Shown: one piece after another, positions 1 through 21,105 of the stretch | Position numbering within the stretch: position 1 is the stretch's first letter | Layout of the letters: the number at the start of each line of letters is the position of its first letter | Virus record (IMG/VR): IMGVR_UViG_3300024346_000576 | Coordinates: 1 to 22,062 of that record | Origin: a virus | Length of the DNA: 22,062 nt | Reading direction: 5' to 3' (one strand) | Notes under the pieces: model-generated | What the model was told of the DNA's origin: nothing | Seen by the model: only the letters and a program-made list of their open reading frames with translations | Database searches by the model: none | Translations under genes and position numbers: made by a program

Positions 1-4
1 CAGT

Positions 5-222: not shown

Positions 223-251
223 TTTTAATGTTAATAAAGTTTATAAAAATG

Positions 252-284
252 TTGATTATTATCAGATGAGAATATCTATATTTG
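252..284 (+). promoter_or_regulatory. Host-type promoter for the early region
   Basis: TATATTTG at 277-284 matches the Bacteroidota -7 consensus TANNTTTG exactly. A TTG at 252-254 lies 22 nt upstream, within the spacing used by flavobacterial primary sigma factors. Transcription would begin around 290, just downstream, and read toward the primase-helicase gene at 372 unless stopped by the hairpin at 288-344. Confidence 0.6.
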
Positions 285-287
285 CAA

Positions 288-344: not shown

Positions 345-368
345 AATTAGCGTGGTTTAAATTAGCGT
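345..368 (+). repeat. Direct repeat AATTAGCGT before the primase-helicase start
   Basis: AATTAGCGT occurs at 345-353 and again at 360-368, 15 nt apart, ending 3 nt before the ATG at 372. The position could serve a regulator binding DNA or the 5' untranslated RNA. There is no Shine-Dalgarno sequence here. Function unknown. Confidence 0.4.
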
Positions 369-7188: not shown

Positions 7189-7364
7189 CTGAGCTACTCA
7201 ACCAGCCAGAGGATAGGATACTCACCAAGCGTACCCTGATACAACTGCAACGCATCAAGAGTAGAGTGACTGGCATCAAAGACAAGGAGTGCTTCTGTGC
7301 ATCAGTACGTAGGAAGGTATGGCTCAAAGACTTTAACATCTGGTATGAAGGAGCAACTGGATAG
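7158..7364 (+). CDS. Small basic hypothetical protein
   Basis: 68 residues from the ATG at 7158; the frame is open earlier but would largely duplicate the upstream membrane-protein gene. The product MLEQTDIQLITELLNQPED... is helical, then basic (LIQLQRIKSRVTGIKDK) and ends with CFCASVRRKVWLKDFNIWYE, a segment I recall as common in small proteins of Bacteroidota phages that lie beside a sigma-like gene. Cysteines are present as C-x-C. No function known. It overlaps the sigma-like gene by 20 nt, suggesting coupled translation and joint regulation. Confidence 0.55.
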   Translation: MLEQTDIQLITELLNQPEDRILTKRTLIQLQRIKSRVTGIKDKECFCASVRRKVWLKDFNIWYEGATG

Positions 7365-7887
7365 ATACGTAGCTAAGAACTACAGTGAGGTGCTCAAGTA
7401 CACCAGGCACTTCCTCAAGGTGCTCAATATACCTGCCTCAATAGATGCAGATGCAGTGATCAACAACGCATACATCCACTGCACCAAGGTACACCTTTCA
7501 GAGATGACTCAAGACAAGGCTAAGAGCTACCTACTGAATACGATCAAGTATGAGTTGATATGGACTCAAGGCTCAAGGACTAAGCGAGATGACATATATA
7601 GGTCTCAGGAGCACTTAGGCGATGACATAGACGACACTACAGACCTTGACCATAAGATACAGATAGAGGAACGCTACAGCTTTAAGAAGGCAATGGTAGA
7701 GATATACAGAAGCCAGCAGCATGACCGCATCAAGCAGATAGTGTTCGAGGCATACTATGACAAAGGGCACTCAACTCAGACCGCCCTGGCTAAGTACTTC
7801 AACATCAACAGTACCTCAGCATACTTCCTGATTAAAGAAATTAAAGAAAATATAAAGTCAATACAATATAGGTATGAAGAGTGTTGA
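7345..7887 (+). CDS. Sigma-70-like transcription factor
   Basis: 180 residues from the ATG at 7345; an upstream start at 7297 is possible but would increase overlap with the preceding gene to 68 nt. Residues 30-75 resemble sigma region 2 (DADAVINNAYIHCTKVH, then DKAKSYLLNTIKYELIW), the helix that in ECF sigma factors carries the AEDVVQ/F pattern. A highly charged linker follows (80-110, DDIDDTTDLDH). Residues 125-172 resemble region 4, with FEAYYDKGHSTQTALAKYFN and a second helix, STSAYFLIKEIKENIK. The match is by pattern and weak in places, so a remote sigma or a sigma-like anti-terminator is meant. The first copy of the repeated late promoter-like element lies within its 3' end, which supports a role in switching on late genes. 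Confidence 0.6.
   Translation: MKEQLDRYVAKNYSEVLKYTRHFLKVLNIPASIDADAVINNAYIHCTKVHLSEMTQDKAKSYLLNTIKYELIWTQGSRTKRDDIYRSQEHLGDDIDDTTDLDHKIQIEERYSFKKAMVEIYRSQQHDRIKQIVFEAYYDKGHSTQTALAKYFNINSTSAYFLIKEIKENIKSIQYRYEEC
7842..7872 (+). promoter_or_regulatory. Phage late promoter-like element, copy 1
   Basis: TAAAG (7842-7846), a 15-nt spacer, then TACAATATAGG (7862-7872) followed by T and the ATG at 7874. The right-hand 11-mer is identical to three other copies; the left box differs from TAACA at two positions. It lies within the coding region of the sigma-like gene. Confidence 0.55.
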
Positions 7888-8038
7888 TATCATAGGGCTT
7901 ATTACTTACATCCTGGCATGGGGTGTGGTCCTGGCATTACTCAATGAAAATATGTACCTGCTGTTTAAGTTCTCAGGTGCTACATTAGGAGCTTATTTAA
8001 TATTTATTATAATAAAAGAGAATGAATTACAAAATTAA
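7874..8038 (+). CDS. Small two-span membrane protein
   Basis: A 54-residue ORF too short to be listed by usual filters. MKSVD is followed by a hydrophobic segment IIGLITYILAWGVVLALL, a short NENMY turn, then FKFSGATLGAYLIFIII and a polar end KENELQN. Two transmembrane helices with both ends likely in the cytoplasm. Size and topology are compatible with a small holin or a structural membrane protein, but nothing proves this. It overlaps the sigma-like gene by 14 nt and the next gene by 17 nt, and starts 2 nt after the late promoter-like 11-mer, which strongly supports it being real. Confidence 0.6.
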   Translation: MKSVDIIGLITYILAWGVVLALLNENMYLLFKFSGATLGAYLIFIIIKENELQN

Positions 8039-8294
8039 ACCAGAGTACATCGGGCAGACTGTCAAGGTGTATGATAGAATCTTAGGGTCTAAGACTATCG
8101 TAGTGAACAAGATCAACCTTAAGAACGTATCCTATTACCAGTCAATCGGTCTCAAGCATATCTTTGAAGAGGTAGTGACTAAGACTACAGAGGATGTAGT
8201 TGTGATAGAATACAAGGCTGTAGATGGTCCAATACCTGAGACAACGGCTAAGCCTAAAAAGAAACGTAAACCTAAGGCAGATGCCAAAGCATAA
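8022..8294 (+). CDS. Small protein with Lys-rich tail, unknown function
   Basis: 90 residues. The first 68 look like a small beta-rich domain (VKVYDRILGSKTIVVNKINL, then a GLKHIFEEVV helix). The last 20 are Lys/Pro/Ala-rich (AKPKKKRKPKADAKA), typical of a disordered nucleic-acid-binding tail. The fold pattern (IGQTVKVYD, then a short strand) resembles small phage head or neck proteins, but I do not recognise a family. It lies directly before the terminase small subunit and overlaps it by 14 nt, so it is probably co-translated with packaging genes. Confidence 0.55.
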   Translation: MNYKIKPEYIGQTVKVYDRILGSKTIVVNKINLKNVSYYQSIGLKHIFEEVVTKTTEDVVVIEYKAVDGPIPETTAKPKKKRKPKADAKA

Positions 8295-8694
8295 ACACAT
8301 AGAGACTCCAGAGGCAATGTGGGAGTTGTTTGAGAGATACAAAGAATGGACCAAGAACAACCCACGTTATCAATACTCACTTTCTAATAAGACTGGTGAA
8401 GCTACTCCAGTGCCATTAGAGAGACCATTGACTCAAGTAGGTTTTAGATGCTTTGCTGCTGATAATGGCAGTACAGTGAATGATTACTTCGCTAATACGG
8501 ATGGGAGATATTCAGTGTATACTACAATCTGTACACGCATAGAGGAGGCAATTAGAAAAGACCAGATAGAAGGTGGCATGACTGGGCAGTACAATGCCTC
8601 AATCACCCAGCGACTGAACAACCTAACTGAGAGAGTAGATACAACTACCCAAGGTCAGGCAATAAATGATATTAAGGTTACTATTATTAAATAG
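8281..8694 (+). CDS. terS: Terminase small subunit-like DNA-packaging protein
   Basis: 137 residues from the ATG at 8281; the open frame extends upstream but would overlap the preceding gene by more than 70 nt. The order of segments fits terminase small subunits of Bacteroidota phages: PEAMWELFERYKEWTKNNP at the N-terminus, a PLTQVGFRCFAADNG motif, a TRIEEAIRKDQIEGGMTGQY helix, and the C-terminal QRLNNLTERVDTTTQGQAIN followed by DIKVTIIK. By family it recognises phage DNA and positions the large subunit, whose gene follows. Between them is a 64-nt gap containing a promoter-like element and a palindrome. Confidence 0.75.
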   Translation: MPKHKHIETPEAMWELFERYKEWTKNNPRYQYSLSNKTGEATPVPLERPLTQVGFRCFAADNGSTVNDYFANTDGRYSVYTTICTRIEEAIRKDQIEGGMTGQYNASITQRLNNLTERVDTTTQGQAINDIKVTIIK

Positions 8695-8696
8695 TG

Positions 8697-8704
8697 TATC
8701 TTTG
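8697..8704 (+). promoter_or_regulatory. TANNTTTG -7 element before terminase large subunit
   Basis: TATCTTTG matches the Bacteroidota -7 consensus exactly and begins 3 nt after the small-subunit stop codon. There is no clear TTG at the expected upstream spacing, so strength is uncertain or an activator is needed. Transcription would start near 8711, upstream of the palindrome at 8718-8740. Confidence 0.4.
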
Positions 8705-8717
8705 ACATAATTCTTAC

Positions 8718-8740
8718 TATACTACTAATTAAGTGGTATA
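8718..8740. promoter_or_regulatory. Palindrome in the terminase leader (operator or RNA hairpin)
   Basis: TATACTACT (8718-8726), loop AATTA, AGTGGTATA (8732-8740): nine pairs with one mismatch as DNA, or one G-U wobble as RNA. It lies in the 64-nt gap before the large terminase gene, downstream of the -7 element. It could be an operator or a structured 5' leader. There is no T run, so it is not a typical terminator. Confidence 0.45.
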
Positions 8741-8758
8741 GTCCAACTATTGCACACA

Positions 8759-9907
8759 ATGGAGATTAAGAGCACAGTCATATTTGAGCGCAACTTTGAA
8801 GCCTTGGCAAGTGAGTCCAGGTTTATCATAAACGAGGGCGGCTCAAGGTCATCTAAGACCTACAGCCTATGCCAGCTTATCATAGTCTACTGCCTGCAGA
8901 ACAGAGGCAAGGTGGTCAGCATCATACGCAAGACCTTCCCAGCACTTAGAGCTACAGTGATGAGGGACTTCTTAGAGATAATGAAGGACTTGGATATCTA
9001 CGAGGTGACCAAGCACAATAAGTCTGAGCACATCTACACCTTTGACAATGGATCTATTGTGGAGTTCTTCTCAGTAGATGATGAGCAAAAGATTAGAGGA
9101 AGGAAGAGAGACCTGGCATGGTGCAATGAAGCTAATGAGCTGTACTACGATGACTTCACTCAGCTCAACATGAGAACGGAGGGCAAGCTCATCTTTGACT
9201 ACAACCCGTCTGAGTCCAACTCATGGCTGTATGAACTGCCAAAGGAAGAGTCAGTGCTCATCAAGTCAACCTACAAGGATAACCCGTTCCTACCTGAGAG
9301 CATCAAGAAACAGATAGAAGACTTGAAGCGAACGGATGAGGCACAGTACCAGATATATGCCCTTGGTGAGAAAGCTATCTCTAAGAGCAACATCTACTCC
9401 AACTGGTCATTCGTTAAGCATAGACCTGCTAAGTTCACAGAGTTTGTCTATGGGCTTGACTTCGGTTACAATCACCCTACTGCCTTGGTCAGAGTCTACT
9501 GGAGGGATAAGGACTTGTACATTGAACCAGTGATCTATGAGAGCTACCTCACCACTACTGACCTGATTGCAAGGATGGACCAGTTAGGCATAGATAAGAG
9601 CGTGAACATACTGGCTGACTACTCAAGACCTGAGACCATAGCCGAGATAGATAGGGCAGGGTATTACATTGAGAATGCCAACAAGGTAGTCAAGAAGGGG
9701 ATAGACAACATCAAGACCTTTGGTATCATATGTGAGGACCACCCTCAACTTAAAAAGGAGTATGAAAACTACAAGTGGAAGAAAGTAGGCGACCAGATAA
9801 CGGATGAGCCAGTCAAACTATGGGATGATGCCATGGATGCCATACGGTATGCAGCTACCTACATCAAGGAGAACTACTTCACCGATGACAGTTACTTATC
9901 CTTCTAA
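8759..9907 (+). CDS. terL: Terminase large subunit
   Basis: 382 residues from the ATG at 8759; a TTG three codons upstream is an alternative but weaker start. The protein is of the PBSX/Terminase_3 type. ATPase half: Walker A-like GGSRSSKT (27-34), a RKTFPALR segment (58-65), and Walker B-like DLAWCNEANE (118-127). Nuclease half (RNase H-like): GLDFGYNHPTALV (232-244, D234), ILADYSRPETIAEID (284-298, D287), and KLWDDAMDAIRYA (353-365, the third acidic cluster). It powers DNA translocation into the prohead and makes the packaging cuts. All key motifs are present, so it should be active. The gene is followed by late promoter-like copy 2, whose left box uses the stop codon. Confidence 0.95.
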   Translation: MEIKSTVIFERNFEALASESRFIINEGGSRSSKTYSLCQLIIVYCLQNRGKVVSIIRKTFPALRATVMRDFLEIMKDLDIYEVTKHNKSEHIYTFDNGSIVEFFSVDDEQKIRGRKRDLAWCNEANELYYDDFTQLNMRTEGKLIFDYNPSESNSWLYELPKEESVLIKSTYKDNPFLPESIKKQIEDLKRTDEAQYQIYALGEKAISKSNIYSNWSFVKHRPAKFTEFVYGLDFGYNHPTALVRVYWRDKDLYIEPVIYESYLTTTDLIARMDQLGIDKSVNILADYSRPETIAEIDRAGYYIENANKVVKKGIDNIKTFGIICEDHPQLKKEYENYKWKKVGDQITDEPVKLWDDAMDAIRYAATYIKENYFTDDSYLSF

Positions 9908-9935
9908 CAGGATTCAAACTAAGATACAATATAGG
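9905..9935 (+). promoter_or_regulatory. Phage late promoter-like element, copy 2
   Basis: TAACA (9905-9909, overlapping the terminase stop), a 15-nt spacer, then TACAATATAGG (9925-9935), T and the ATG at 9937. Same spacing and right-hand 11-mer as copies 1 and 3. Confidence 0.65.
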
Positions 9936-9936
9936 T

Positions 9937-11436
9937 ATGGCAACAACAATCATAGCACAGCCTCAAGACTTCACTCCTGCATACAACGAGTGCAAGTTCA
10001 TAGTCAACTCAACCAATGTCAACAAGGATGGCTTCAGATATATCTTTGAGGTATTCGAGGCAGGCACAGCAACCAGGATAGGATACTACAAGGCACTGCC
10101 AACATTCGGCACTGGCTATGGTGAGCAGGACTTGAGTAAGCTCCTGAGCAACATGGTGAGCTTTGACTTCAACCCTACAGTGACTACATTCTATGATGCG
10201 GCTAATAGCTACTTCGAGTATGATGTCAAGATAGGTGAGGAGTATATCTATGAGCTGAGCTACACAGCATCCTTGGTGAACAATGCAGGCAACGTGCGTA
10301 TCACAGCAACACATGCCTTTGTGGTAGGTGACCAGATAAACATCACCCAAGCAGTGGGAGGTATAGCAGCCAACCCTGGAGTGGAAGGTCTGCACACTGT
10401 TGTCTCAGTAGTTGGCACAACATCATTCACTATCAATGCCTTATGGTCTGAGGTGACGGATGCAACCATCAACGGTGCAGTGAAGTACGCTGACAACAGA
10501 AAGACAATAGCCTTGAACATAGTGAGCACCTTAGACAAGTATGTCTTTAACGGGGTGCAACCTTGGATTGACATGCCGTTCTGGGATGAGACTGACTACG
10601 TGCTTGACAACATACATGGGCAATGGCTCACAGACCAGCCTCAAGTATTCAGTTGCACACCTGGTCAGGACTTATGGCTCAACCTTAAGGATGTTGGTCC
10701 AGTACCTGTCAACAAGAGGGTGTACTTTGAGAATGATAACGGTGACTTGTTCTACAAGGATTTAAGTGGATCTGACTACATCAAGGGTGTGGCAGTTGGT
10801 CCTAATAACTATGGCACGCTAACCTTAGCAAGTGGTAGTCATCCATTGGTCAAGCCAACAACTCAGACATATCAGATATGGTACAGTGACGGTATCTTTA
10901 ACCCTGTGAAGAGTTTAGCATGCCAGGTCAAGATAGATAGAAGGGTACTCATCTCTGAGAGTCATATCTTATTCTTAGATAGAATGGGCTCATGGAGTAG
11001 CTTTGCCTTCCAACTTAAGAGCTATGAGAAGCTGGCTATCAAGAGAGAGACCTACAACAAGGACGTGCCAGGATATGTAACGGGAGCAGAGTGGAAGTAC
11101 AATAGTTATGAACAAGGGGCTGTTAATTTCAACACCCAAGTAACTAAGACCATTGACCTCAACACTAACTGGATGAGTGAGAACGAAGGCATCTACTTCC
11201 AACAGTTAGTTACCTCACCACAGACTTATGTTAAGAACGTAGTGTATCACATCACAGAGGACGGAGTGCCGTTGTATGATGAGGATGGCTGCATCTTACA
11301 TGTGCCTGAGAGCACTGAGTACATTAGCTGTAATGTGCTGAACACTAACTTTGACATACAGAGGCAACGCAACAAGAACTTGATCAAGCAATCAGTACAG
11401 ATTAGGTTATCTAACAACGACATCATAAATGGTTAA
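9937..11436 (+). CDS. Virion structural protein, probable tail component
   Basis: 499 residues of mainly beta-type sequence. It begins MATTIIAQPQDFTPAYNECK and contains a region around 110-165 that resembles an Ig-like or ubiquitin-activating-type insert (NNAGNVRITATHAFVVGDQI, then GVEGLHTVVSVVGTTSFTIN). The later part is rich in aromatic residues and ends NKNLIKQSVQIRLSNNDIING. I recall this layout in structural proteins of Bacteroidota phages and prophages but cannot name a family. It is the first gene of the tail block, starts 2 nt after the late promoter-like motif, and overlaps the next gene by 8 nt. The position before a tape measure gene suggests a tail tube, baseplate or tail-tip role; this is inference. 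Confidence 0.6.
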   Translation: MATTIIAQPQDFTPAYNECKFIVNSTNVNKDGFRYIFEVFEAGTATRIGYYKALPTFGTGYGEQDLSKLLSNMVSFDFNPTVTTFYDAANSYFEYDVKIGEEYIYELSYTASLVNNAGNVRITATHAFVVGDQINITQAVGGIAANPGVEGLHTVVSVVGTTSFTINALWSEVTDATINGAVKYADNRKTIALNIVSTLDKYVFNGVQPWIDMPFWDETDYVLDNIHGQWLTDQPQVFSCTPGQDLWLNLKDVGPVPVNKRVYFENDNGDLFYKDLSGSDYIKGVAVGPNNYGTLTLASGSHPLVKPTTQTYQIWYSDGIFNPVKSLACQVKIDRRVLISESHILFLDRMGSWSSFAFQLKSYEKLAIKRETYNKDVPGYVTGAEWKYNSYEQGAVNFNTQVTKTIDLNTNWMSENEGIYFQQLVTSPQTYVKNVVYHITEDGVPLYDEDGCILHVPESTEYISCNVLNTNFDIQRQRNKNLIKQSVQIRLSNNDIING

Positions 11437-14221
11437 TATAGTACTAAGCACAGGGCAGCTTGATGTGGCTGAGAACGTATCAGTACCTATCACATTCAAC
11501 ATTGGTGACATCAGAGACTTGACCTCAAGAAAGGGAACGTTCTCCAAGACCATAGTGCTTGAGGGTACTAAGAACAACCATGAGCTGTTAGGTCACTACT
11601 ACGATGTGAATATCCAAGCAGGCACGTTCAACATTAACACCTTGACTAAGTGCCAGGTGGTGCAGAACGGTGTGCCAATCTTAGATGATGCACTGCTACA
11701 GTTGGTGAGCGTGAACAAGGTACAGAACAACAACAGCTATGAGGATGAGGTGAACTACACCGTACTTATCAAGGATAGTAGGGCTGAGTTCTTTACTGCC
11801 ATCACTAATGCTAACTTGACTGACTTAGACTTCTCAGACTTAAACCACGTCTTTGACTCATCTGCTATAGTAGCATCATTTGCACACACTGTAACAGATG
11901 GCTACAAGTACGTCATGCCATGGAGCGACCTACCAGACTACACTGCCAATGACTTTAAGCCGGGCATATATGCTAAGACTTACTTTGATAGGATATTCGC
12001 TGTGGCTGGCTTCACATACACATGGAGTGAGTTAGCTGCTGCACACTTCGATAAGCTGTTGATACCTTACAATGGAGATACCAACAACCAAGACTATGAA
12101 GACTACAGAGTTGAGGCAACCAATACATGGACCACAACCAATGTGCAGGCAGTAGGTCAGAACATCACCTTCCTTGAAGCAGTAGACTCAGGATGGACAG
12201 AGGTGATTGATAGTCAAGGTATCTTTGACCCTACAACGGGTGAGTACTCTTCACCATTCAGCACCAACACCAATGCAGGTGAGCACTACACTTACAACCT
12301 ATCCATAGGTGGTACTATTGCCTTGGTCAACTCAAGTGGTGGGAACGCAGTGCTTGATAGTTCTGTTGCAGGAGCTTCTAATGAAAAAAATAGATACAGA
12401 GTCTTTGCAAGGGTATCAGTGGCAGGCAGTGGTAATGCTATTGTGTATGGTCAGTCATCTGTAATTTATTCAAACACTACACCTCTTGCAACAGGGAGCA
12501 CAACAATACTTAGCTTTGCTGAGACCTTACCTATACCCGTTGCCTACAATGGTAGTGGTGTGGCTAATGGTATCACAGCAGGCGACATACAAATACTTGA
12601 GGTAGGTGTTGAGGTATATCAGACTTATAATGTAGCTCCATTTTCAAATATTCCTACTCCAAACAATCGATGGATAGCAGCAGGAGGTGGCTTTACATTA
12701 GTGCCTGTTAACGTAGTCCTTGACCTGGCGTCTATCAACATGGTGATACTACCATCGAACAACATCCAGGTGACGGGCTCAACCTTAGTCATGAACCAAT
12801 ATGTGCCAGTAGAGGTCAAGCAGTCTGACTTTGTTAAGGCAATCTTTCAGATGTACAACCTTTACATTGAGCAGGATGTTGATAACCCGTACAACCTGAT
12901 ACTAAGACATAGGGATGAGTACTATGACTCAGGTGCTGAGAAGGACTGGAGTCAAAAGCTGGCAAAGGATAAGGCTCAGGAGTTAATGTTCCTGCCAGAT
13001 GTAACTAACAAGAAGCTTAAGCTAACCTATGCACCAGATGAGGATGGACCTAATGTGGCATACACTCAAGCGACTGGTGAGATATATGGACAAATAGAAT
13101 ACACTTTTGACAATGAATACGTTAAGGACGTTGATACTAAGGAGCTACTGTTCTCCCCTACTCCAGTATACCGTACAATCTTTGGGGCATATGTGCCTAA
13201 CATAAGCGGTCAAGCACCCAATGTGAACATCCGCATCTTGTATGATGGTGGTGTTGGCACATGTCAACCGTATGATATCATAGACTTTGGCACTACAGGG
13301 CAGATTGGTGAGACTGACTACCCTGTGATAGGTCACTTCAATGACCCGTTGTATCCTACCTTTGACATCAACTTCGGGACCAATGACTACTACTTCTATG
13401 AGACTGAGACATTAACTAACAACAACTTGTACAACCTATACTGGAGGCGCACAGTCAACCAGATAAACGTAGGTAAGATGTTGACTGCTATGTTTGACCT
13501 TGATGAGGTAGACATCCAAGGCTTGAAGCTCAATGATAGGATATACATAGATAACTCATGGTGGAACATTAACAAGATACAAGACTACAATGCTAACAAC
13601 AACAGCTTGACCAAGGTTGAGTTGATTAGTGTGGATACTGAGATTGACCTGGCACGCTTCAAGACTGGAGCAGGACTTCCTATAGGTGATACAATTACTG
13701 CTGTAAGTTTGGATAGTATCATGCGTACAAAGACTGCCAACACAAATGTGATCATGCCAGGTGCAGATGCAATAGTGATGGGTAGAGGTAACACTGTTAC
13801 GGCTGGCACTAAGGGAGTGATAGTAGGTGACGGTCAGACCTTAGCCAATGATGGCATAGTGGTGAGTGACCTTACAGTGACGGGCACTATCAATGGAGAT
13901 GCTGTAGTACCGTATAAGAAGTATATTGCTACTTTACTACAGACAAGCACCACAGACCCACTTGCAACGGTACTTGAGAACACTATAGGTGACATTGTGT
14001 GGACCAGGTTATCAATAGGATACTACAGAGGTCAGTTGACTGGTGCTTTTCCTGACCAAGATAAGACATACATAGTATTGAATGGTACAACAAACCCAGG
14101 ACTTTGCACTTCGTTTTGGGATAACACAGATCAGATAAGAATAAGAACTTTTGATACCTCTACAAGTGCCTTGGCTGATGACTTTTTACAATTTGCAACA
14201 ATAGAAATAAGAACATACTAA
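11429..14221 (+). CDS. Large tail or baseplate structural protein with repetitive C-terminal beta region
   Basis: 930 residues. The N-terminal 130 residues (VPITFNIGDIRDLTSRKGTF, then SKTIVLEGTKNNHELLG and VVQNGVPILDDALLQL) resemble a module found in large structural proteins of Bacteroidota phages. The middle has an aromatic, tail-tip-like part (FVKAIFQMYNLYIEQDVDNP near residue 470). Residues about 770-826 carry short Gly/Val repeats (GADAIVMGRGN, GTKGVIVGDGQ, DLTVTGTINGD), suggesting a left-handed or triple beta-helix as in trimeric fibre stalks, followed by a 100-residue C-terminal domain that could bind a receptor or be a chaperone part. Residues about 314-424 use more T-ending codons than the surroundings. 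It overlaps the previous gene by 8 nt, and the tape measure gene follows after 1 nt. Confidence 0.65.
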   Translation: MVNIVLSTGQLDVAENVSVPITFNIGDIRDLTSRKGTFSKTIVLEGTKNNHELLGHYYDVNIQAGTFNINTLTKCQVVQNGVPILDDALLQLVSVNKVQNNNSYEDEVNYTVLIKDSRAEFFTAITNANLTDLDFSDLNHVFDSSAIVASFAHTVTDGYKYVMPWSDLPDYTANDFKPGIYAKTYFDRIFAVAGFTYTWSELAAAHFDKLLIPYNGDTNNQDYEDYRVEATNTWTTTNVQAVGQNITFLEAVDSGWTEVIDSQGIFDPTTGEYSSPFSTNTNAGEHYTYNLSIGGTIALVNSSGGNAVLDSSVAGASNEKNRYRVFARVSVAGSGNAIVYGQSSVIYSNTTPLATGSTTILSFAETLPIPVAYNGSGVANGITAGDIQILEVGVEVYQTYNVAPFSNIPTPNNRWIAAGGGFTLVPVNVVLDLASINMVILPSNNIQVTGSTLVMNQYVPVEVKQSDFVKAIFQMYNLYIEQDVDNPYNLILRHRDEYYDSGAEKDWSQKLAKDKAQELMFLPDVTNKKLKLTYAPDEDGPNVAYTQATGEIYGQIEYTFDNEYVKDVDTKELLFSPTPVYRTIFGAYVPNISGQAPNVNIRILYDGGVGTCQPYDIIDFGTTGQIGETDYPVIGHFNDPLYPTFDINFGTNDYYFYETETLTNNNLYNLYWRRTVNQINVGKMLTAMFDLDEVDIQGLKLNDRIYIDNSWWNINKIQDYNANNNSLTKVELISVDTEIDLARFKTGAGLPIGDTITAVSLDSIMRTKTANTNVIMPGADAIVMGRGNTVTAGTKGVIVGDGQTLANDGIVVSDLTVTGTINGDAVVPYKKYIATLLQTSTTDPLATVLENTIGDIVWTRLSIGYYRGQLTGAFPDQDKTYIVLNGTTNPGLCTSFWDNTDQIRIRTFDTSTSALADDFLQFATIEIRTY

Positions 14222-14222
14222 C

Positions 14223-16790
14223 ATGAATGAAGTAGAGATACCATTAAAGATAACGGGCATTGGTGCAATCAAGGCTGAGCTTAGAGACCTCAAAGGAGCT
14301 ATTGCCAATGCTACAGACCCTGAGTCAATTCAAGCACTATCAATGCGAGCTGGTGAGCTCAAGGACCAACTCAAGGATGCTAATGAGGCAGTGAATGTCT
14401 TTGCATCTGGCAGTAAGTTTGAGCAGGTCAGCAACTCAATCGGAGGTATCAAGGACTCATTAATGAGCTTGGACTTTGAAGAGGCTAATCAAAAGGCTCA
14501 AGTCTTTGCAGGCGCACTTGGTAAGCTCAACCCTGCAGACTTGGCAAAGGGCTTCAAGGGATTGATGGGTACTATCTCCACTGTAGGAGGTGCATTCGTT
14601 AAGTTAGGGATGACCATCCTTGCCAACCCTATATTCTTATTGGTTGCTATTATCACTGTAATTGTGGTGGCTATAGGTGTATTCCTTAAAAAGATAGGTG
14701 TACTTGATGCAGTCTTCAAGGCTATCATGGGACCTATCAATGCGGTGATACAAGGCTTCAAGGACTTGACTGACTACATGGGCTTGACTGACAATGCAGC
14801 AGAAGAGAATGCAGAGGCGGTAAAGGAGTCCAGTGAGAAAAATATTGATAGCATCAAGCAACAGTCCAAGGCTCAGCAAGACTTGTATAACCTTACAAAG
14901 GACTTGAGTGATGAGGAGATAGCAATGCTTGAGGAGAAGTATGGCATCCAGGTTGATACAAGTCAGAGTATCTATGACCTTAAGCAGGAAGAGATTGACC
15001 AGTTACAATATGAGAACCAAAGGCAGATTGATTCACTCAATGCAAAGAAGGAACTAACAGAAGAGGATAAGAAGAGGCTGGCTGACCTCAACAAGACTAA
15101 GTTTGACTTAGGGCAGCAGGAGATAGCAAACGAGGCTAATAGAATAATGGCTATCAAGAACCTCAACATGAGCCTTGATAAGCAGATTGAGACTCTACAG
15201 GCTAAGCAAATCAAGGGTGAGTCTGAGCGTGCTAAGGCAATGCTTGACATTCAGCTTAAGGAGGCTTTGTCTAAGGTTGACCAACAGATTAAAGAGGCTA
15301 AACAACTTGGCAACCAGGAGGCAGTATCTAAGGCATTGACACTGAGAGGGCTTATCATTCAGGACTTTAAACGGCAAGAGCTTGAGATAACTAACAAGGG
15401 CAATGCAGGTATTGCTAAATCTAACACAACTGCTGCTGTAAAAAGTGTGCAAGAGACCAAAAGCGCTGAGGCTAAGAAATTAGAGGAGATGCGTAAAGCA
15501 GGTGAGAAAGCAATACTATTACTGCAAACAAATAACGCATCAGAGGAGGATATCCAAGCAGAGAGACTTAAGCAGCTTGATGCTGAGCTAACCTATGTCA
15601 AGGCTAACAAGGCTAAACTTTACAAAGCTACAGTTGACCAAGATACAGCTATCCTTAAATTACAGAAATCTATCAATGATATTAAGGATAAAGAGGCAGC
15701 TCAAAGGGAGAAAGAGGACAATGCAAATATGATTGCTAAACTTGAGCGAGATATAGTCAATGCAGAAGAGAACTCAAAAGCTTTATTTGAGGCAGAGAAA
15801 GCTCTATTAACTGAGCAGTCTAAGCAAAAAATGGCTGACCTTGAGGTGGGCTCAGATGCTGCCTTGTTACTTGCAGATGAAACTGCCAAAGGTATTGCAG
15901 ATATCAATAAAAAAATCACTGAAAGCGAGGATGAGAAAAATCTTAAAATACTTGCAGCGGCTCAACTGGTAGCAGAGACCAAGTTGTCTAATGAAGCCTT
16001 TGCACTTGAGAGATTAAAAGGTACTAATGATGAGCAGATAGCAGCACAAGAGGCATTCCTTGCAACTACATTGTCTACCCTTGAGGCTCAAAGAATTACA
16101 GAACTTGCCAACAAGGAGCTATCACAAGCAGAAGTAGCAGCTATAGAAGAGAAATATAGACAAGCTAAAATAGTAGCAGAAGAGGCAACGGCTGCCAAAT
16201 TAGCTGAGATAGATGCTAAGTCAAGAGAAAAGACATACGCTGCCATTGACAAAGGAGTTGAGGATACCAAGAACGGTCTGAATGTTATTGCATCTCTTCA
16301 ACAAATGAACACTGATAGAAAGCTCAAAGGTATAGAGAAAGGAAGTAAGGAAGAGGAGAAAATACTTAAGCAACAATTTGAGCAACAGAAGGCAATGCAG
16401 TTAGCAATGGCTGCAATCAATGGAGCTCAAGCCATCCTTGCAATCTTATCTGTTCCTGACTTTACCTTAGGGGTATCCTCAGGTCTTAGGATAGCAGCAT
16501 CAGTAGCAGCAACAGCAGCGAGTATCAGTGCCATTGCAAGTACAACCTTTAGCGGTGGTGGTAGTGCTCCTTCTGCTGTAGACCCAACGGGCGGCTCAAC
16601 ACCATCAACAGGTGGTATGGCTACACCAGCAGTATCATTGTTTGGTAGTGCCAACCAACTCAACAACGTAGGAGGGGAGGCATCACAACAGCAGAACAAT
16701 AACATCACAGTCACTGCAATAGTTAGTGAGACTGAGATGACCAACACACAGAATAGAGTAAACAAAATACAACGCAACGCAGAATTATGA
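14223..16790 (+). CDS. Tail tape measure protein
   Basis: 855 residues, typical of a tail length ruler. An N-terminal helical part is followed by a hydrophobic segment at about 128-155 (NPIFLLVAIITVIVVAIGVF), then about 500 residues of highly charged heptad-like coiled coil (for instance EEIAMLEEKYGIQVD, EEDKKRLADLNKTKFD, AERLKQLDAELTYVK). A second hydrophobic, Ala-rich stretch lies at about 735-785 (AINGAQAILAILSV; RIAASVAATAASISAIAS), then a Gly/Ser/Pro-rich tail. No lysozyme or peptidase domain is evident. The known ratio of roughly 0.15 nm per residue would imply a tail near 130 nm, so a long, probably flexible (siphovirus-like) tail; this is an estimate. It overlaps the next gene by 4 nt (ATGA). 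Confidence 0.85.
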   Translation: MNEVEIPLKITGIGAIKAELRDLKGAIANATDPESIQALSMRAGELKDQLKDANEAVNVFASGSKFEQVSNSIGGIKDSLMSLDFEEANQKAQVFAGALGKLNPADLAKGFKGLMGTISTVGGAFVKLGMTILANPIFLLVAIITVIVVAIGVFLKKIGVLDAVFKAIMGPINAVIQGFKDLTDYMGLTDNAAEENAEAVKESSEKNIDSIKQQSKAQQDLYNLTKDLSDEEIAMLEEKYGIQVDTSQSIYDLKQEEIDQLQYENQRQIDSLNAKKELTEEDKKRLADLNKTKFDLGQQEIANEANRIMAIKNLNMSLDKQIETLQAKQIKGESERAKAMLDIQLKEALSKVDQQIKEAKQLGNQEAVSKALTLRGLIIQDFKRQELEITNKGNAGIAKSNTTAAVKSVQETKSAEAKKLEEMRKAGEKAILLLQTNNASEEDIQAERLKQLDAELTYVKANKAKLYKATVDQDTAILKLQKSINDIKDKEAAQREKEDNANMIAKLERDIVNAEENSKALFEAEKALLTEQSKQKMADLEVGSDAALLLADETAKGIADINKKITESEDEKNLKILAAAQLVAETKLSNEAFALERLKGTNDEQIAAQEAFLATTLSTLEAQRITELANKELSQAEVAAIEEKYRQAKIVAEEATAAKLAEIDAKSREKTYAAIDKGVEDTKNGLNVIASLQQMNTDRKLKGIEKGSKEEEKILKQQFEQQKAMQLAMAAINGAQAILAILSVPDFTLGVSSGLRIAASVAATAASISAIASTTFSGGGSAPSAVDPTGGSTPSTGGMATPAVSLFGSANQLNNVGGEASQQQNNNITVTAIVSETEMTNTQNRVNKIQRNAEL

Positions 16791-17512
16791 CAAGTTATCA
16801 AGCACTAATCAACAAGATTGAAGGATTCTACAATGACCATCTCCAGGTTAAAAAGGTACACAGCGACTTCACAGAGCAACTGCCAAACTTTGCTACCAAG
16901 GATGAGAAGTATCCTCTGATATTCATAGCTCCTATTGTGGCTATCCCTACTGAGAATACCAACACTATCAGCTTAGAGATATACTGCCTTGACATTATTC
17001 AAAAGGATCGTGCCAACATCACAGTGATACTATCTGATTGCCATCAAATACTGGTTGACCTGGTAAACTATTTTACCTTTAGCTCAGACTATGACTTTGA
17101 TATCTTAGGAGTGCCAACGCTCAACCCGTTAAACAATCAATTGCTTGACTATGCTGCTGGCTGGGTGATGACTATAGATGTTGACATGAGCAACTGGACA
17201 GATTGTCAAGTACCTCTTAAGTTGCCTGTTGTAGTAGGGTGTGATACAATTAGTGTTACTTACACCTTAATAGGCGAAGAGCCTGTAACGGTAGAGGTTG
17301 AGAGTAGCGGGACGTTTAATAGTAAGAATTTTTATAATATACCAGATGCAGGAACTATATTTTGGGAAATAGGAGGAACTTTCGGAACAAATTGGAGGTT
17401 AGCTATTAATGATGTTTATTTACTTTCAGAAGACACCCCTTGCCCATTCGGAACTTACACAATAGAAGAAGGTAGTATCTTTGAATCATTTGAGGTTGCA
17501 CCGATATTATAA
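16787..17512 (+). CDS. Tail protein with an added C-terminal domain
   Basis: 241 residues in two parts. Residues 1-145 (MTSYQALINKIEGFYNDHLQ, then FIAPIVAIPTENTNTISLEIY and the segment LDYAAGWVMTIDVDMSNWTDC) are codon-matched to the neighbouring tail genes and resemble a small conserved tail protein following the tape measure gene in Bacteroidota phages, perhaps a tail terminator or tip protein. Residues about 148-241 are a separate beta-rich domain (VSVTYTLIGEEPVTVEVE-like start, then DAGTIFWEIGGTFGTNWRLA) encoded by distinctly A+T-richer DNA from about 17245. This looks like a recently gained binding domain. The start is fixed by the 4-nt overlap with the tape measure gene. Confidence 0.6.
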   Translation: MTSYQALINKIEGFYNDHLQVKKVHSDFTEQLPNFATKDEKYPLIFIAPIVAIPTENTNTISLEIYCLDIIQKDRANITVILSDCHQILVDLVNYFTFSSDYDFDILGVPTLNPLNNQLLDYAAGWVMTIDVDMSNWTDCQVPLKLPVVVGCDTISVTYTLIGEEPVTVEVESSGTFNSKNFYNIPDAGTIFWEIGGTFGTNWRLAINDVYLLSEDTPCPFGTYTIEEGSIFESFEVAPIL

Positions 17513-17540
17513 CAGAATCATAAGTTAATTACAATATAGG
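17510..17540 (+). promoter_or_regulatory. Phage late promoter-like element, copy 3
   Basis: TAACA (17510-17514, using the upstream stop codon), a 15-nt spacer, then TACAATATAGG (17530-17540), T and the ATG at 17542. Identical layout to copy 2. Confidence 0.65.
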
Positions 17541-17541
17541 T

Positions 17542-18192
17542 ATGGCTCAGAGACAAAAGATATCACAGATGACCCCTAAAGGGGCTAACCTTGAGGCAAC
17601 AGACTTGCTTGAGATAAGTGAGGATACTGGGTCGGGCTACGTTACTAAGTCAATCACTGGTCAACAAATCATTGCGGCTGGCTCTTATGGGCTTTATGCA
17701 CAGACTGCCTTGGGTACTCTTATCACAAACACTATCACAGAGACCTCTTTAGTGGGTGCAGGAGTAGGCACATTATTTGTTCCTGCTAATGCGTTCAGTG
17801 TAGGTAATAGCTTTGTGGCTAAGATGTGTGGCAACCTATCATGTGCAGGCAGTGAGACAATACATATAAGAATAAAATCAAACGGTGTTACTATAGCAGA
17901 TGCTGGAGTATTCTCTATGAAGATAACAACTGATAAATTCTTTGAGCTTACTATTGACTTCACAGTTACCAAGATTGGGGCAGCAGGAGTAGCTGAGTTA
18001 TTTGTCAATGGGCAATATAGCTACAACCATAATGCAGCAGGTGAGATAGCAGGTAATAACTTTGCCTTAATAAGCAATACTACCTTTGACACTACTGTTA
18101 GTAATACTCTTACTATCACTGCTGAGTGGGGACTTGCTAAGACGGCTAATAAGATTCAATCACAGAACTTTGTACTAAATAAAATATACTAA
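17542..18192 (+). CDS. Tail fibre or receptor-binding-type structural protein
   Basis: 216 residues. The N-terminus (KISQMTPKGANLEATDLLEI, then YVTKSITGQQI) matches the adaptor motif seen at the start of many phage fibre-like proteins, where a KISQLP...TGTDLLEIS pattern precedes a variable domain. The remainder is beta-rich and Thr/Val/Asn-rich (SLVGAGVGTLFVPANAFSVG; FELTIDFTVTKIG; LTITAEWG) and resembles a jelly-roll-like tip domain. It opens the fibre block, starting 2 nt after late promoter-like copy 3. Likely a distal virion protein that contacts the host surface; partner and receptor unknown. Confidence 0.6.
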   Translation: MAQRQKISQMTPKGANLEATDLLEISEDTGSGYVTKSITGQQIIAAGSYGLYAQTALGTLITNTITETSLVGAGVGTLFVPANAFSVGNSFVAKMCGNLSCAGSETIHIRIKSNGVTIADAGVFSMKITTDKFFELTIDFTVTKIGAAGVAELFVNGQYSYNHNAAGEIAGNNFALISNTTFDTTVSNTLTITAEWGLAKTANKIQSQNFVLNKIY

Positions 18193-18204
18193 TAAATAAT
18201 AAAC

Positions 18205-18471
18205 ATGCCAACAGATAACGACATCTTAATAGCTAATCAAGGAACTTTTATCCTTAATAATACAGCTACAAAAACAACAATTATCAATGCTATAGTAGCG
18301 CTTGAGGATACTGTGTTCAGTGCCATTAGAATAGCAGGCACAGACGTGAAGGCAACTTACATTGCTGCACCATCAACAGCTGTTAAGGCAGGTACTATCA
18401 TACGTCCTACTAATGCTCAACAATTTAGTGGTGTTACTTTAACAAGTGGCTCAGTAATTTTAGTACTATGA
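18205..18471 (+). CDS. Small structural-type protein
   Basis: 88 residues, rich in Ala, Thr, Ile and Val with few charges (beginning MPTDNDILIANQGTFILNN, ending TLTSGSVILVL). The pattern suggests a small beta-structured virion decoration or fibre-associated protein. No family recognised. It follows the fibre-like gene after 12 nt and overlaps the DUF1566 gene by 4 nt (ATGA), so the two are probably made together and may form one appendage. Confidence 0.55.
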   Translation: MPTDNDILIANQGTFILNNTATKTTIINAIVALEDTVFSAIRIAGTDVKATYIAAPSTAVKAGTIIRPTNAQQFSGVTLTSGSVILVL

Positions 18472-19109
18472 TAAGTGCATTAAACTTCAAGATAGGTGGA
18501 GGGGGTGCTGCTCCCACACCTGCACCCGTTGGTCAAACCTTAATGAAAACAGGTCAAACTACTTCATACAGGACTGGTGATGACGGAGATATTGAAGCGG
18601 GTCGTGCAACTTCATTTAGTGTACTTGCAAGTAATAACCCTTTTGGTAACACAAATAGGTTTACAGATGAGTTAGGGGGTGCTACATACACTAATAATAT
18701 TGTGATAGATTGGTCTACTTATGATGGTGCTACAGTATTAGGCTATAGAAGAACAGTAAATGCAACAGCTATTACTTGGAACAATGCAATAGACGGAGCA
18801 TTAGCAGTAAGTATAGGGTCTTTCACAAGTGGGTGGAGACTTCCTAATATTTACGAAATGATGAATATTTGGAATGGTGGAGTTAGTTTATCCTATAATT
18901 ATCCTCCTTTTAATTTAAATACTGGAGGTAATTGGAATATATGGACTTCAAATACTCCTTCTATTGCAAGTACAGTTGCTTGGGTGGTTCAGATATCAAA
19001 TATTGGTTCATTTAATTATATAGGAAAAACATTAACAACTTCTGCAGGTAATGATTGCAGATATATACCAGTTAGAACATTTACAGTAACGGGAACAACA
19101 TTAACTTAA
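18468..19109 (+). CDS. DUF1566 / Lcl_C domain protein, probable receptor-binding protein
   Basis: 213 residues. A Gly/Pro-rich linker (GGGGAAPTPAPVGQ, 10-23) precedes LMKTGQTTSYRTGDDGDIEA (25-44) and FGNTNRFTDELGG (59-71), then the Lcl_C hallmark GWRLPNIYEMM (122-132), tryptophans at W154 and W159 (NWNIWTSN), and a C-terminal CRYIPVRTF (197-205). This is the C-type-lectin-like domain of DUF1566 proteins, used on bacterial and phage surfaces for binding. As part of the fibre block it is a good receptor-binding candidate. Residues about 134-195 are very Asn-rich and encoded by A+T-rich DNA with many AAT codons, unlike the start of the gene. The start is fixed by the 4-nt overlap. Confidence 0.75.
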   Translation: MISALNFKIGGGGAAPTPAPVGQTLMKTGQTTSYRTGDDGDIEAGRATSFSVLASNNPFGNTNRFTDELGGATYTNNIVIDWSTYDGATVLGYRRTVNATAITWNNAIDGALAVSIGSFTSGWRLPNIYEMMNIWNGGVSLSYNYPPFNLNTGGNWNIWTSNTPSIASTVAWVVQISNIGSFNYIGKTLTTSAGNDCRYIPVRTFTVTGTTLT

Positions 19110-19124
19110 TAAATATAAAATAAA

Positions 19125-19361
19125 ATGGCAACTTACAAATTTCCACAATTCAACGTTGAAATAGTTAACCCAACGGTTACTGTTACAATGGTAACAGATA
19201 ACATAATTGATAGGGTATGTTCAGCAAGTGTATTACTTGCAACTACTTCAACTAATTTTGGTGTTGAGTTTACTGGTTACACTTATACAACTGATTGGGA
19301 TGACCAAGATATTATTGATTGGGTAAATAACGTGGAGCTTCCTAAGTACGAAGTAAAGTAA
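19125..19361 (+). CDS. Small hypothetical structural protein
   Basis: 78 residues (MATYKFPQFNVEIVNPTVTV through an acidic middle DDQDIIDWVNN to LPKYEVK). Beta-strand pattern with alternating hydrophobic residues in the first half, acidic in the second. No family recognised. Encoded in A+T-rich DNA like the end of the gene before. It is placed between the receptor-binding candidate and the 150-residue gene, 15 nt and 3 nt away respectively, so it is part of the same transcript. Probably a small virion or appendage protein, by position only. Confidence 0.5.
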   Translation: MATYKFPQFNVEIVNPTVTVTMVTDNIIDRVCSASVLLATTSTNFGVEFTGYTYTTDWDDQDIIDWVNNVELPKYEVK

Positions 19362-19364
19362 ACA

Positions 19365-19817
19365 ATGGCAAGATACGCTAACACTGGAGAATTTAATGTC
19401 CTTTATCCCACCAGGAGAAGGATGGCAAATATACTTAAACGTATAATCAGAAATGATGTTGTTGATGGTCAAGGCACATTGGTTGAGTCTATTAGAATCA
19501 ATGCCAAGATAACGGGCTTTGAGAAGTTGGAGATACAAATCATAGCCATGTACTACTTTATTTTCCTTAATAATGGCGCATTTTTATGGAACGGTGGAGT
19601 AATTACACCAAGAGACTACGTTGCACAGTTCACAGATGAGCTTAATGCGGCTGGTATCACTGCTGAGATATACTCACAGTACACTGAGTGGATGACTAAA
19701 CGTTATCCTATCCTACAAGTGGCAGAGATACTTGAAAAGAATCAAAAAATAGTGTATACATTTGAGGCATTAGATCCACCTGCAGGCTTCAAGGTAGGTT
19801 ATCCTTTAGATGTTTAA
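19365..19817 (+). CDS. Possible head-tail connector or gp10-like protein
   Basis: 150 residues. MARYANTGEFNVLYPTRRRM is followed by a basic helix, then a LVESIRINAKITGF and IIAMYYFIFLNNGAFLWNGG region whose 'S.R......Y..FLNNGA' pattern is faintly like the HK97 gp10 family of head-tail joining proteins. The C-terminal half is helical and ends AGFKVGYPLDV. The similarity is weak, so the assignment is tentative. It is the last plus-strand gene before the inverted pair; its stop overlaps the end of the convergent gene by 12 nt, leaving no space for a terminator between them. Confidence 0.45.
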   Translation: MARYANTGEFNVLYPTRRRMANILKRIIRNDVVDGQGTLVESIRINAKITGFEKLEIQIIAMYYFIFLNNGAFLWNGGVITPRDYVAQFTDELNAAGITAEIYSQYTEWMTKRYPILQVAEILEKNQKIVYTFEALDPPAGFKVGYPLDV

Positions 19818-20540
19818 CTCTTTTTTCATAGCCATCATATTAAAGGTTAGAACAAGTGGCATGTCAGTGACCTGGTCAAACTTAGTCAGGTCTTCATTGC
19901 ACAGTCCATATAGCAACCGTTCCCAACTCCACTTAATAGCACTCTTATGCTCCTGCTCAGCCTTGGCATCTTGAGAGTTAGCTGGCTTGATAGCTTCTTC
20001 TTCCTCTTCTGACTCATCTGCTTGGAAGAGTAGCTCATACTTCTCCATGAACGTTGTCCTGAATGCTAAGTACTCAGTGATTATACCGTATATCTCATTG
20101 ATGCCGTACTCATCAAACAGCTCAGCACGTTCAAAGGGTGAGTACTTGTAAGGCTCAAAGACTAAGTCACCCCACTCATTGATGCTGTGCTTCCTGTATA
20201 AGATAGAGGCTACATGTGAGATGTGCTTGATGTAGTCATTGGCAAAGAAGTACTCAAGGTCAATGAACTCACCCACTGTGAGCTTAGACAATGGCTTAAA
20301 CTTCCACTCACCAAGTACATGCTTGTAGAACTTAGACGGCTCAGAGTTAATGAAGGTGATATCTTTAAGCATATCACCCACTTCGCTTATGTCAAGGTCC
20401 TCTAAGTCATCCGATGGTATGTCAGCCAGTGTAGCAAGTATCTCTATCTCCCTGGAGAAGGTCTCCTCAATGGTATATAGTGACCTAATCTCTTTAAACT
20501 GAAAGACATCTATCTCACTCCACGACTTCGGCAGGTGCAT
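19806..20540 (-). CDS. Tail-assembly-chaperone-like protein B
   Basis: 244 residues on the minus strand. MHLPKSWSEIDVFQFKEIRS at the start, DDLEDLDISEVGDMLKD near residue 45, and KFKPLSKLTVGEFIDLE near residue 80 line up, in the same order, with segments of the upstream minus-strand gene, so the two are paralogues or a divided pair. The second half is helical with a strongly acidic stretch (ADESEEEEEAIKPANSQD near 190) before a conserved-looking WSWERLLYGLCNEDLTKFDQ. Size, position beside tail genes and pairing suggest tail assembly chaperones (like lambda G and GT), but no slippery frameshift site is seen, and the pair is orientated against the other late genes. The start overlaps the previous gene by 26 nt in the +1 frame. 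Confidence 0.5.
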   Translation of the reverse strand: MHLPKSWSEIDVFQFKEIRSLYTIEETFSREIEILATLADIPSDDLEDLDISEVGDMLKDITFINSEPSKFYKHVLGEWKFKPLSKLTVGEFIDLEYFFANDYIKHISHVASILYRKHSINEWGDLVFEPYKYSPFERAELFDEYGINEIYGIITEYLAFRTTFMEKYELLFQADESEEEEEAIKPANSQDAKAEQEHKSAIKWSWERLLYGLCNEDLTKFDQVTDMPLVLTFNMMAMKKELNI

Positions 20541-21063
20541 CCTTAGGCATTTGTTTAGCTAACTTCTGACCAATCTCAACTAAGTAAGGCACTGCTAACT
20601 CAGCCTTAAGTTCACGTATCATTTTTGCTTTATGCTTGATGTGTGCCTCTGCATAGTGCTCAGCCTTGGTCAAGTCCTCACGCTTAAATAGGATAGCCAA
20701 CAGTTCAGCTATGTATCCCTTATGTTTGGAGTGCATAACCTTCTCAATGTGCTTAGTATCCTTGACAGATAGTCTGAAGGTATCACCCTCGAATGCCTTA
20801 TAAGTGTATCCTTCCATCTCAATAGATTGCTGTAGCTCAGGCTTACCGCTAAGGTCATTGAATACCTTAACACATTCCTTGAACTCCTCAATAGATACAT
20901 CCTCAAAGTCAACTTCTGGCACACCTAACAACTCAAACACTTCAAGGTGCTTGGCTATTGCATCCAGTTCATTATTGGCATGGATATTTGTGATCTGTTC
21001 AAACTGTAAGACCGTCAACTCATTCAGTTGATTAGGTACTTCTCTTCCTAAAATTGTTACCAT
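20515..21063 (-). CDS. Tail-assembly-chaperone-like protein A
   Basis: 182 residues from the minus-strand ATG at 21063. A start six codons earlier (21081) exists but would fall within the likely promoter, so the shorter form (MVTILGREVPNQLNELTVLQ) is preferred. The order of segments, LNELTVLQFEQI, VDFEDVSIEEFKE, FRLSVKDTKHIEKVM and IAELLAILFKRED, parallels its downstream neighbour (WSEIDVFQFKEI, DLEDLDISEVGD, FKPLSKLTVGEF, HVASILYRKH), pointing to gene duplication. The C-terminus is Lys/Ala-rich and ends PKDAPAEVVE. Probably a tail assembly factor, by pairing and location. It is transcribed from its own minus-strand promoter, diverging from the protease gene. Confidence 0.5.
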   Translation of the reverse strand: MVTILGREVPNQLNELTVLQFEQITNIHANNELDAIAKHLEVFELLGVPEVDFEDVSIEEFKECVKVFNDLSGKPELQQSIEMEGYTYKAFEGDTFRLSVKDTKHIEKVMHSKHKGYIAELLAILFKREDLTKAEHYAEAHIKHKAKMIRELKAELAVPYLVEIGQKLAKQMPKDAPAEVVE

Positions 21064-21075
21064 AGAATTATTTTT

Positions 21076-21105
21076 TAACAAATATACAACTTTCTACAAT
21101 ATAGG
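21076..21105 (+). promoter_or_regulatory. Phage late promoter-like element, copy 4
   Basis: TAACA (21076-21080), a 14-nt spacer, then TACAATATAGG (21095-21105), C and the ATG at 21107. Unlike the other copies it lies in an intergenic region, between two divergent genes, so coding constraint cannot explain its conservation. Confidence 0.65.
21079..21086 (-). promoter_or_regulatory. Minus-strand -7 element for the inverted gene pair
   Basis: Read on the minus strand the sequence is TATATTTG, an exact match to TANNTTTG. It lies 15 nt before the preferred start at 21063 and overlaps the left box (21076-21080) of late promoter-like copy 4 on the plus strand. No TTG is found at the expected spacing. 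Confidence 0.45.

What the first reader, a model, noticed from the sequence alone, without database searches (positions are those of the whole stretch)
7842..21105. Four-copy bipartite motif placed directly before late gene blocks: a probable phage-specific promoter family
TACAATATAGG followed by one pyrimidine and ATG occurs at 7862, 9925, 17530 and 21095, each time ending 2 nt before the start of a gene that opens a block (small membrane protein and packaging genes; tail genes; fibre genes; head protease). A left box, TAACA in three copies and TAAAG in the fourth, lies 14-15 nt upstream. Outside the two boxes the spacers are not similar. The motif differs from the host-type TANNTTTG element and is not at the early gene starts I checked. 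As the right box is so close to ATG, mRNAs would be almost leaderless. The AGG is too near the ATG to be a Shine-Dalgarno site.
Basis: partly seen in the sequence, partly recalled or inferred. Interest (0 to 1): 0.78.

Follow-up and report, generated by a model that had tools for sequence, protein, structure and literature searches.

The report
Phage late promoters with matching sigma
A DNA signal set almost on top of the start codons of five phage gene blocks is very probably the phage's own late promoter, and the gene beside its first copy encodes a sigma-like protein that most likely reads it; the two have changed together across a widespread group of uncultivated phages.

Summary
TACAATATAGG-Y-ATG occurs four times, exactly and on one strand, where 0.0004 copies are expected; near-complete relatives (about 30 kb) carry five. 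It is kept at nucleotide level: where copy 1 overlaps a gene end, five consecutive codons are identical in all 69 distinct genes. It behaves as a promoter, not a translation signal: one copy directly follows a conserved terminator, one follows opposite-strand genes, and in some phages the ATG has moved away. The left box is better read as AACA, which distant relatives carry at the same gene blocks. Across three clades of this protein the -10 sequence (TACAAT, NACAAT, TAATAT) and the spacer (15, 14, 16) shift together at several sites. Best reading: host-type TAnnTTTG promoters drive early genes, then the phage sigma sends host RNA polymerase to five nearly leaderless late promoters. The closest working analogue is phage 7-11's late sigma, with no detectable homology. 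No transcript was mapped.

The parts
7345..7887 (+). ECF-sigma-like protein, 180 aa; probable reader of the promoters; its 3' end contains promoter 1
   Evidence: AF2 model, PDB fold matches nearly all sigma factors, sub-threshold full-length TIGR02937 matches in relatives
7842..7846 (+). left box of promoter 1 (TAAAG)
   Evidence: sequence
7862..7872 (+). promoter 1 right box TACAATATAGG (ATG at 7874)
   Evidence: codon invariance in 69 of 69 genes
9905..9909 (+). left box of promoter 2 (TAACA; TAA is also the terL stop codon)
   Evidence: sequence
9925..9935 (+). promoter 2 right box (ATG at 9937, tail block)
17510..17514 (+). left box of promoter 3 (TAACA; TAA is also the stop codon of ORF 16787-17512)
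   Evidence: sequence
17530..17540 (+). promoter 3 right box (ATG at 17542, probable fibre block)
21076..21080 (+). left box of promoter 4 (TAACA), overlapping the divergent host-type promoter
   Evidence: sequence
21095..21105 (+). promoter 4 right box (ATG at 21107, protease/capsid block)
21079..21086 (-). divergent host-type promoter element TATATTTG for the two minus-strand genes
   Evidence: present in 34 of 36 distinct relatives
277..284 (+). host-type promoter element TATATTTG before the primase gene (early)
7874..9907 (+). block 1: 54-aa protein, gp8022, terminase small and large subunits
   Evidence: PHROG matches
9937..17512 (+). block 2: tail genes with tape-measure protein
17542..19817 (+). 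block 3: probable fibre genes
   Evidence: position and ORFs; no family match
21107..22062 (+). block 4: protease-like head gene (runs off the record); in relatives followed by a virion structural protein

Best explanation
The motif is the promoter of the phage's late transcription units and is read by host RNA polymerase carrying a phage-encoded ECF-like sigma factor. In the wider group its form is [TG]AACA-N14-16-TAnnATATARGY-ATG: an AAC-type -35 element, a TAnnAT -10 element, and a start point at or within a few bases of the start codon, so late mRNAs are leaderless or nearly so. Early genes are transcribed from host-type TAnnTTTG promoters; the last gene before the late region encodes the sigma factor, and its 3' end contains the first late promoter. 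The sigma factor then opens five dispersed late promoters (packaging, tail, fibre, protease/capsid, portal and lysis blocks). Shown here: the motif, its nucleotide-level conservation, its placement, its co-divergence with the sigma-like protein, and the predicted sigma-like fold. Inferred: that this protein binds core polymerase and these sites, the exact start point, and the timing.
For: Five copies per near-complete genome, one strand only, 0-1 mismatches. Located by downstream-gene homology, the core is nearly invariant in 106 distinct upstream sequences while spacers differ between sites. Five codons invariant in 69/69 genes, against 7/108 comparable codons elsewhere. A conserved terminator about 20 nt before copy 5 and opposite-strand genes before copy 4 both require a new start. 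Motif kept where the ATG has moved or is GTG. Clade 2 and clade 3 phages have diverged motifs at the corresponding gene blocks, with AACA in all of them and modal spacers 14 and 16 against 15. Sigma-like protein: first 29 Foldseek matches are sigma factors, VIA-align finds sigma-4 and sigma-2 matches (Z up to 8.6), TIGR02937 E 1e-4 over residues 5-169 in a relative.
Against: No RNA or biochemical data. The sigma profile match is below its curated cut-off and absent for the window's own protein. AF2 pTM is 0.44 and the Z-scores are moderate, a range in which helical folds can match by arrangement. The left box is confounded in the window's own clade. If the start lay 6-8 bp past the 9-mer, as in phiEco32, it would fall after the start codon. 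Pairing of protein and motif rests on position, co-occurrence and co-divergence, not on binding.
Confidence: 0.8

Rival explanations
1. The sites are late promoters, but the 7345-7887 protein acts as a RinA/ArpU/Ltr-type DNA-binding activator helping host sigma, not as a sigma factor itself.
For: [quoted passage not shown] Weak TIGR01636 (RinA) matches, E 0.013-0.088.
Against: The -10-like element is not the host TAnnTTTG type. No activator repeats were seen upstream; the Ltr promoter described in PMC13123087 has 18-bp repeats. Five dispersed promoters instead of one late operon. Fold and profile cover sigma-2 as well as sigma-4.
Confidence: 0.1
2. The motif is a translation or RNA-level signal (ribosome or regulator binding at the start codon), not a promoter.
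For: It almost always ends one base before the start codon.
Against: It persists where the first gene is missing and the next ATG is about 22 nt away and where the start codon is displaced by -2 to +3 nt. Sites 4 and 5 need a promoter of their own. A conserved AACA element lies 13-16 nt further upstream. It stands only at block starts, not at internal genes.
Confidence: 0.05
3. Promoter of a phage-encoded single-subunit (T7-like) RNA polymerase.
For: A long directional motif ending in TATAGG, as T7-type promoters do around their start point (own knowledge).
Against: No PF00940 match in six near-complete genomes, though that search had no positive control. The large ORFs are primase-helicase, tail and tape-measure genes. 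The GG is lost in clades 2 and 3 while TAnnATATA and AACA remain.
Confidence: 0.02

Closest known systems
Salmonella phage 7-11 late sigma factor gp47 and its promoters GTAAtg-(16)-aCTA (PMC8948821)
   Same: A phage-encoded sigma factor directs host polymerase to a bipartite motif upstream of late genes; early genes use host sigma.
   Different: No detectable sequence relation between the sigma proteins; different -35 and -10; here the right box touches the start codon.
Escherichia phage phiEco32 sigma factor gp36, consensus tAATGTAtA (PMC4331800, PMC8948821)
   Same: Long AT-rich -10-type element. The clade 3 version here, TAATATATA, matches the phiEco32 consensus at 8 of 9 positions.
   Different: phiEco32 promoters have a single element and its sigma lacks region 4; here a left AACA element and a sigma-4-like domain are present. 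No sequence relation found.
RinA / Ltr late regulators of Gram-positive phages (PMC13123087)
   Different: Those act on one late promoter, for Ltr through upstream repeats; here five dispersed promoters, no such repeats, and the RinA profile score is far below cut-off.
Bacteroidota primary-sigma promoters (TAnnTTTG)
   Same: Used by the same phages for early and minus-strand genes.
   Different: The late motif does not match it.

Membership tests
ECF (group 4) sigma factors | sigma-2 and sigma-4 domains joined by a flexible linker, no sigma-3 | tested here: met
   AF2 helices 2-76, disordered 76-97, helices 101-178; PDB matches to sigma-4 (Z 8.6 to 3mzy, 73 residues, 2.4 A; Z 7.6 to 2h27) and to sigma-2. 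Predicted model only; Z moderate.
ECF (group 4) sigma factors | recognised by the curated sigma70-ECF profile TIGR02937 | tested here: inconclusive
   Almost full-length matches in relatives, E 1e-4, 2.4e-4 and 1.7e-3, 18-22 bits against a cut-off of 42.9; no match for the window's own protein.
ECF (group 4) sigma factors | AAC-type -35 element at a fixed distance from the -10 element | tested here: met
   AACA at every site of clade 2 and at the clade 3 block starts, modal spacers 14 and 16; weaker in the window's clade.
ECF (group 4) sigma factors | binds core RNA polymerase and starts transcription | not testable with these tools
   needs biochemistry
RinA / Ltr late regulators | gene directly upstream of the packaging-gene promoter | tested here: met
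   gene 7345-7887 ends on promoter 1, followed by terS and terL
RinA / Ltr late regulators | RinA profile TIGR01636 above cut-off | tested here: not met
   13.0 and 15.7 bits against 31.9
RinA / Ltr late regulators | single late promoter | tested here: not met
   five dispersed copies of the motif per near-complete genome
phiEco32 / 7-11 phage sigma factors | sequence relation to gp36 or gp47 | tested here: inconclusive
   hhalign probability under 1% to either single sequence; these sigma factors diverge fast (15% identity between the two)
T7-like RNA polymerase promoters | phage encodes a single-subunit RNA polymerase | tested here: inconclusive
   no PF00940 match in six near-complete genomes, but the control genomes did not ring either

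The most novel reading that the evidence does not exclude
A previously undescribed family of phage ECF-like sigma factors in an uncultivated phage group, paired with a promoter class whose start point coincides with the start codon (leaderless late mRNAs), in which natural clades have shifted the -10 sequence and the -35/-10 spacing (14, 15, 16) in concert at several sites, giving a ready series of possibly orthogonal sigma/promoter pairs.
Probability: 0.6. Interest if true: 0.66.

Novelty: new variant of a known kind. Interest (0 to 1): 0.55.

Why it matters
It gives an early-to-late transcription plan for an abundant phage group that has no close cultivated relative in the collection searched. 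It predicts leaderless or nearly leaderless late mRNAs. It is also a natural experiment on how a sigma factor and all its promoters change together: each genome has only about five sites, and three clades differ in -10 sequence and spacer length. If the host is a Bacteroidota, as the early promoters suggest, the pairs are candidate independent expression parts for that phylum.

Tried and rejected
(1) Chance, or coding constraint alone, at copy 1: rejected by codon invariance. (2) TAACA as the true left box: replaced by AACA after seeing relatives. (3) Direct search for the sigma-like protein in cultivated phages and GTDB genomes: nothing; the genome-collection relative L286 was reached through terL. 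(4) Other terL relatives: no homologue of the sigma-like protein in 79 loci and no convincing ATG-linked repeat in the 11 scanned; many of these contigs hold little sequence upstream of terL, so absence is weak. (5) Sequence search against PDB, single and profile: nothing significant. (6) First AF2 model (18 close sequences, pLDDT 62) placed only sigma-2; the second (26 diverse sequences) placed both domains. (7) Host from the MAG that carries L286: its relatives are all 0.4-1.0 Mb genomes, binning doubtful, not used. (8) Homology to phiEco32 and 7-11 sigma factors: not detected. (9) An AACA-N16-TAATATAG site inside the gp8022 gene of clade 3: promoter 1 displaced, or coding coincidence; unresolved. 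(10) Literature searches found no paper describing this motif or protein in the held library.

Full report
WHAT WAS CHECKED. The window is a whole IMG/VR record of 22,062 bases, a phage fragment. TACAATATAGG-Y-ATG occurs four times exactly, all on the + strand, at 7862, 9925, 17530 and 21095; 0.0004 copies are expected. A pattern-free search for sequences shared in register before ATGs finds the same four as the largest cluster. The genes that follow are a 54-aa protein with gp8022, terS and terL, tail genes with a tape-measure protein, probable fibre genes, and a protease-like head gene.

RELATIVES. Among 139 matches to TAACA-N12-18-TACAATATAGG in loci from IMG/VR, spacers 14 and 15 account for 103, of which 93 are followed by YATG; the other spacers account for 36, of which 2 are. 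Near-complete records of about 30 kb carry five copies at 0-1 mismatches, all on one strand, clearly apart from the chance matches at 3 mismatches. One record, G002, has a variant at site 4 (TTCAATATAGGGTATG). The fifth copy opens a block with a portal protein and an M15-peptidase endolysin.

CONSERVATION WITHOUT ASKING FOR THE MOTIF. I located the five downstream genes in the relatives by tblastn and read what precedes them. In 106 distinct upstream sequences the core is nearly invariant, while spacers are unrelated between sites. At site 1 the motif overlaps the end of the preceding gene and encodes IQYRY. Those five codons (ATA CAA TAT AGG TAT) are identical in 69 of 69 distinct genes and are the only run of two or more invariant codons in the gene; elsewhere 7 of 108 comparable codons are invariant. 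Selection therefore acts on the nucleotides.

WHY A PROMOTER. (a) At site 5 a terminator hairpin (-15 to -18 kcal/mol) with a T-run ends about 20 nt before the motif in all eight genomes examined, so a new start is needed. (b) At site 4 the two preceding genes lie on the opposite strand. (c) In one sub-clade (13 of 69 genes) ATG has become ATA, the small first gene is missing, and the motif stands about 22 nt before gp8022. (d) In other clades the start codon is displaced by -2 to +3 nt or is GTG. (e) Early and minus-strand genes instead have TAnnTTTG, the form known for the Bacteroidota primary sigma factor: 34 of 36 distinct sequences before the divergent gene, and nearly all primase leaders seen.

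THE LEFT BOX. In the window's clade it is weak: the five sites share TTnTAA (p 0 to 0.015 in two genomes, weaker in a third), which coincides with stop codons at sites 2 and 3, a divergent TATATTTG at site 4 and a terminator tail at site 5. Relatives resolve it. In clade 2 all five sites have TAAACA or TGAACA, and the clade 3 block starts have AACA as well. AAC is the usual core of ECF -35 elements (own knowledge).

THE PROBABLE READER. The gene ending on promoter 1 (7345-7887) encodes 180 aa without a confident family match of its own. Repeated searches gave relatives of 43-100% identity. With 26 sequences AlphaFold2 gives pLDDT 76.7: helices 2-76, a disordered linker, helices 101-178. The first 29 Foldseek matches in the PDB are sigma factors, mostly ECF (E 0.002 to 0.3). 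VIA-align's 50 rows are sigma factors or sigma-like proteins, covering sigma-4 (Z 8.6 over 73 residues at 2.4 A to 3mzy; Z 7.6 to sigmaE region 4 on its -35 DNA, 2h27) and sigma-2. These Z-scores are moderate for a helical protein; the uniformity of the matches is the stronger point. Independently, NCBIfam's sigma70-ECF profile matches three relatives over nearly their whole length (E 1e-4, 2.4e-4, 1.7e-3), below its cut-off. I call it ECF-like, not a certified ECF member.

CO-DIVERGENCE. Clade 2 (L286 and its IMG/VR relatives; terL 76% identical, sigma-like protein about 45%) has TRAACA-N14-NACAATATAARY-ATG; G034 and G028 hold exactly five such bipartite sites on one strand and none on the other. 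Clade 3 (G031, G038, G039, G040; sigma-like protein 43-47%, terL about 80%) has AACA-N16-TAATATATAAGT-ATG or close variants. In clade 3 a fibre-like block lies directly after terL, and a promoter stands at its new start. Modal spacers are 15, 14 and 16 in clades 1, 2 and 3, with site 4 one base shorter in each. A concerted shift at several sites is what a change in the reading protein predicts.

MECHANISM. Shown: motif, conservation, placement, co-divergence, predicted sigma-like fold. Inferred: host polymerase makes early mRNA from TAnnTTTG promoters; the sigma gene is the last early gene; the sigma factor redirects host core polymerase to five late promoters. With TAnnAT as the -10 hexamer, six bases separate it from the start codon, and the invariant pyrimidine before A is a typical start dinucleotide, so transcripts should begin at the start codon. 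If phiEco32's ruler applied (start 6-8 bp past its element; PMC8948821), they would begin after it; as ATG and GTG interchange there as start codons, I find this less likely.

COMPARISON. The working analogues are phage 7-11, whose sigma gp47 reads GTAAtg-(16)-aCTA before late genes, and phiEco32, whose sigma reads tAATGTAtA (PMC8948821, PMC4331800). No homology to either is detectable here. The gene position recalls RinA and Ltr regulators (PMC13123087), but the RinA profile score and the promoter layout do not fit. The kind is known; this family and its start-codon-fused promoters appear undescribed in the material searched.

LIMITS. There are no RNA data. The host is uncertain: TAnnTTTG promoters and several terL neighbours suggest Bacteroidota, and the only MAG association is doubtful. 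The polymerase search had no positive control.

Noticed in passing
window 284-360 (leader of the primase mRNA): Invariant GGGGTTGTCGGAGGCATCCAC, then AAAAGG...CCTTTCCCC with a T-run (terminator-like), and a second pairing with compensatory changes between relatives (CACGCT/AGCGTG, CACTGTT/AACAGTG, TTCTTGCTA/TAGCAAGAA, ACTCGTT/AACGAGT). No Rfam match and no unusual single-sequence stability. Looks like an undescribed early leader RNA, perhaps an attenuator with a pseudoknot.
   Followed up: partly
window 1-240: Several imperfect copies of GTTTACACTT / AGTGTACACT in a non-coding AT-rich stretch, possibly an origin or repressor-binding region.
   Followed up: no
window 8695-8704: A host-type TATCTTTG between terS and terL in the window's sub-clade, found in 13 of 42 distinct relatives' upstream sequences; possible extra promoter for terL.
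   Followed up: partly
window 6114-6890: N6/N4 DNA methyltransferase gene between early genes, absent from the corresponding place in the G002 gene list; looks like a recent insertion.
   Followed up: no
L286 (JAIXRY010000011.1): A 29.6 kb relative of this phage is filed as a contig of a 0.8 Mb MAG whose relatives are all 0.4-1.0 Mb genomes; probably mis-binned, or an unexpected host.
   Followed up: partly
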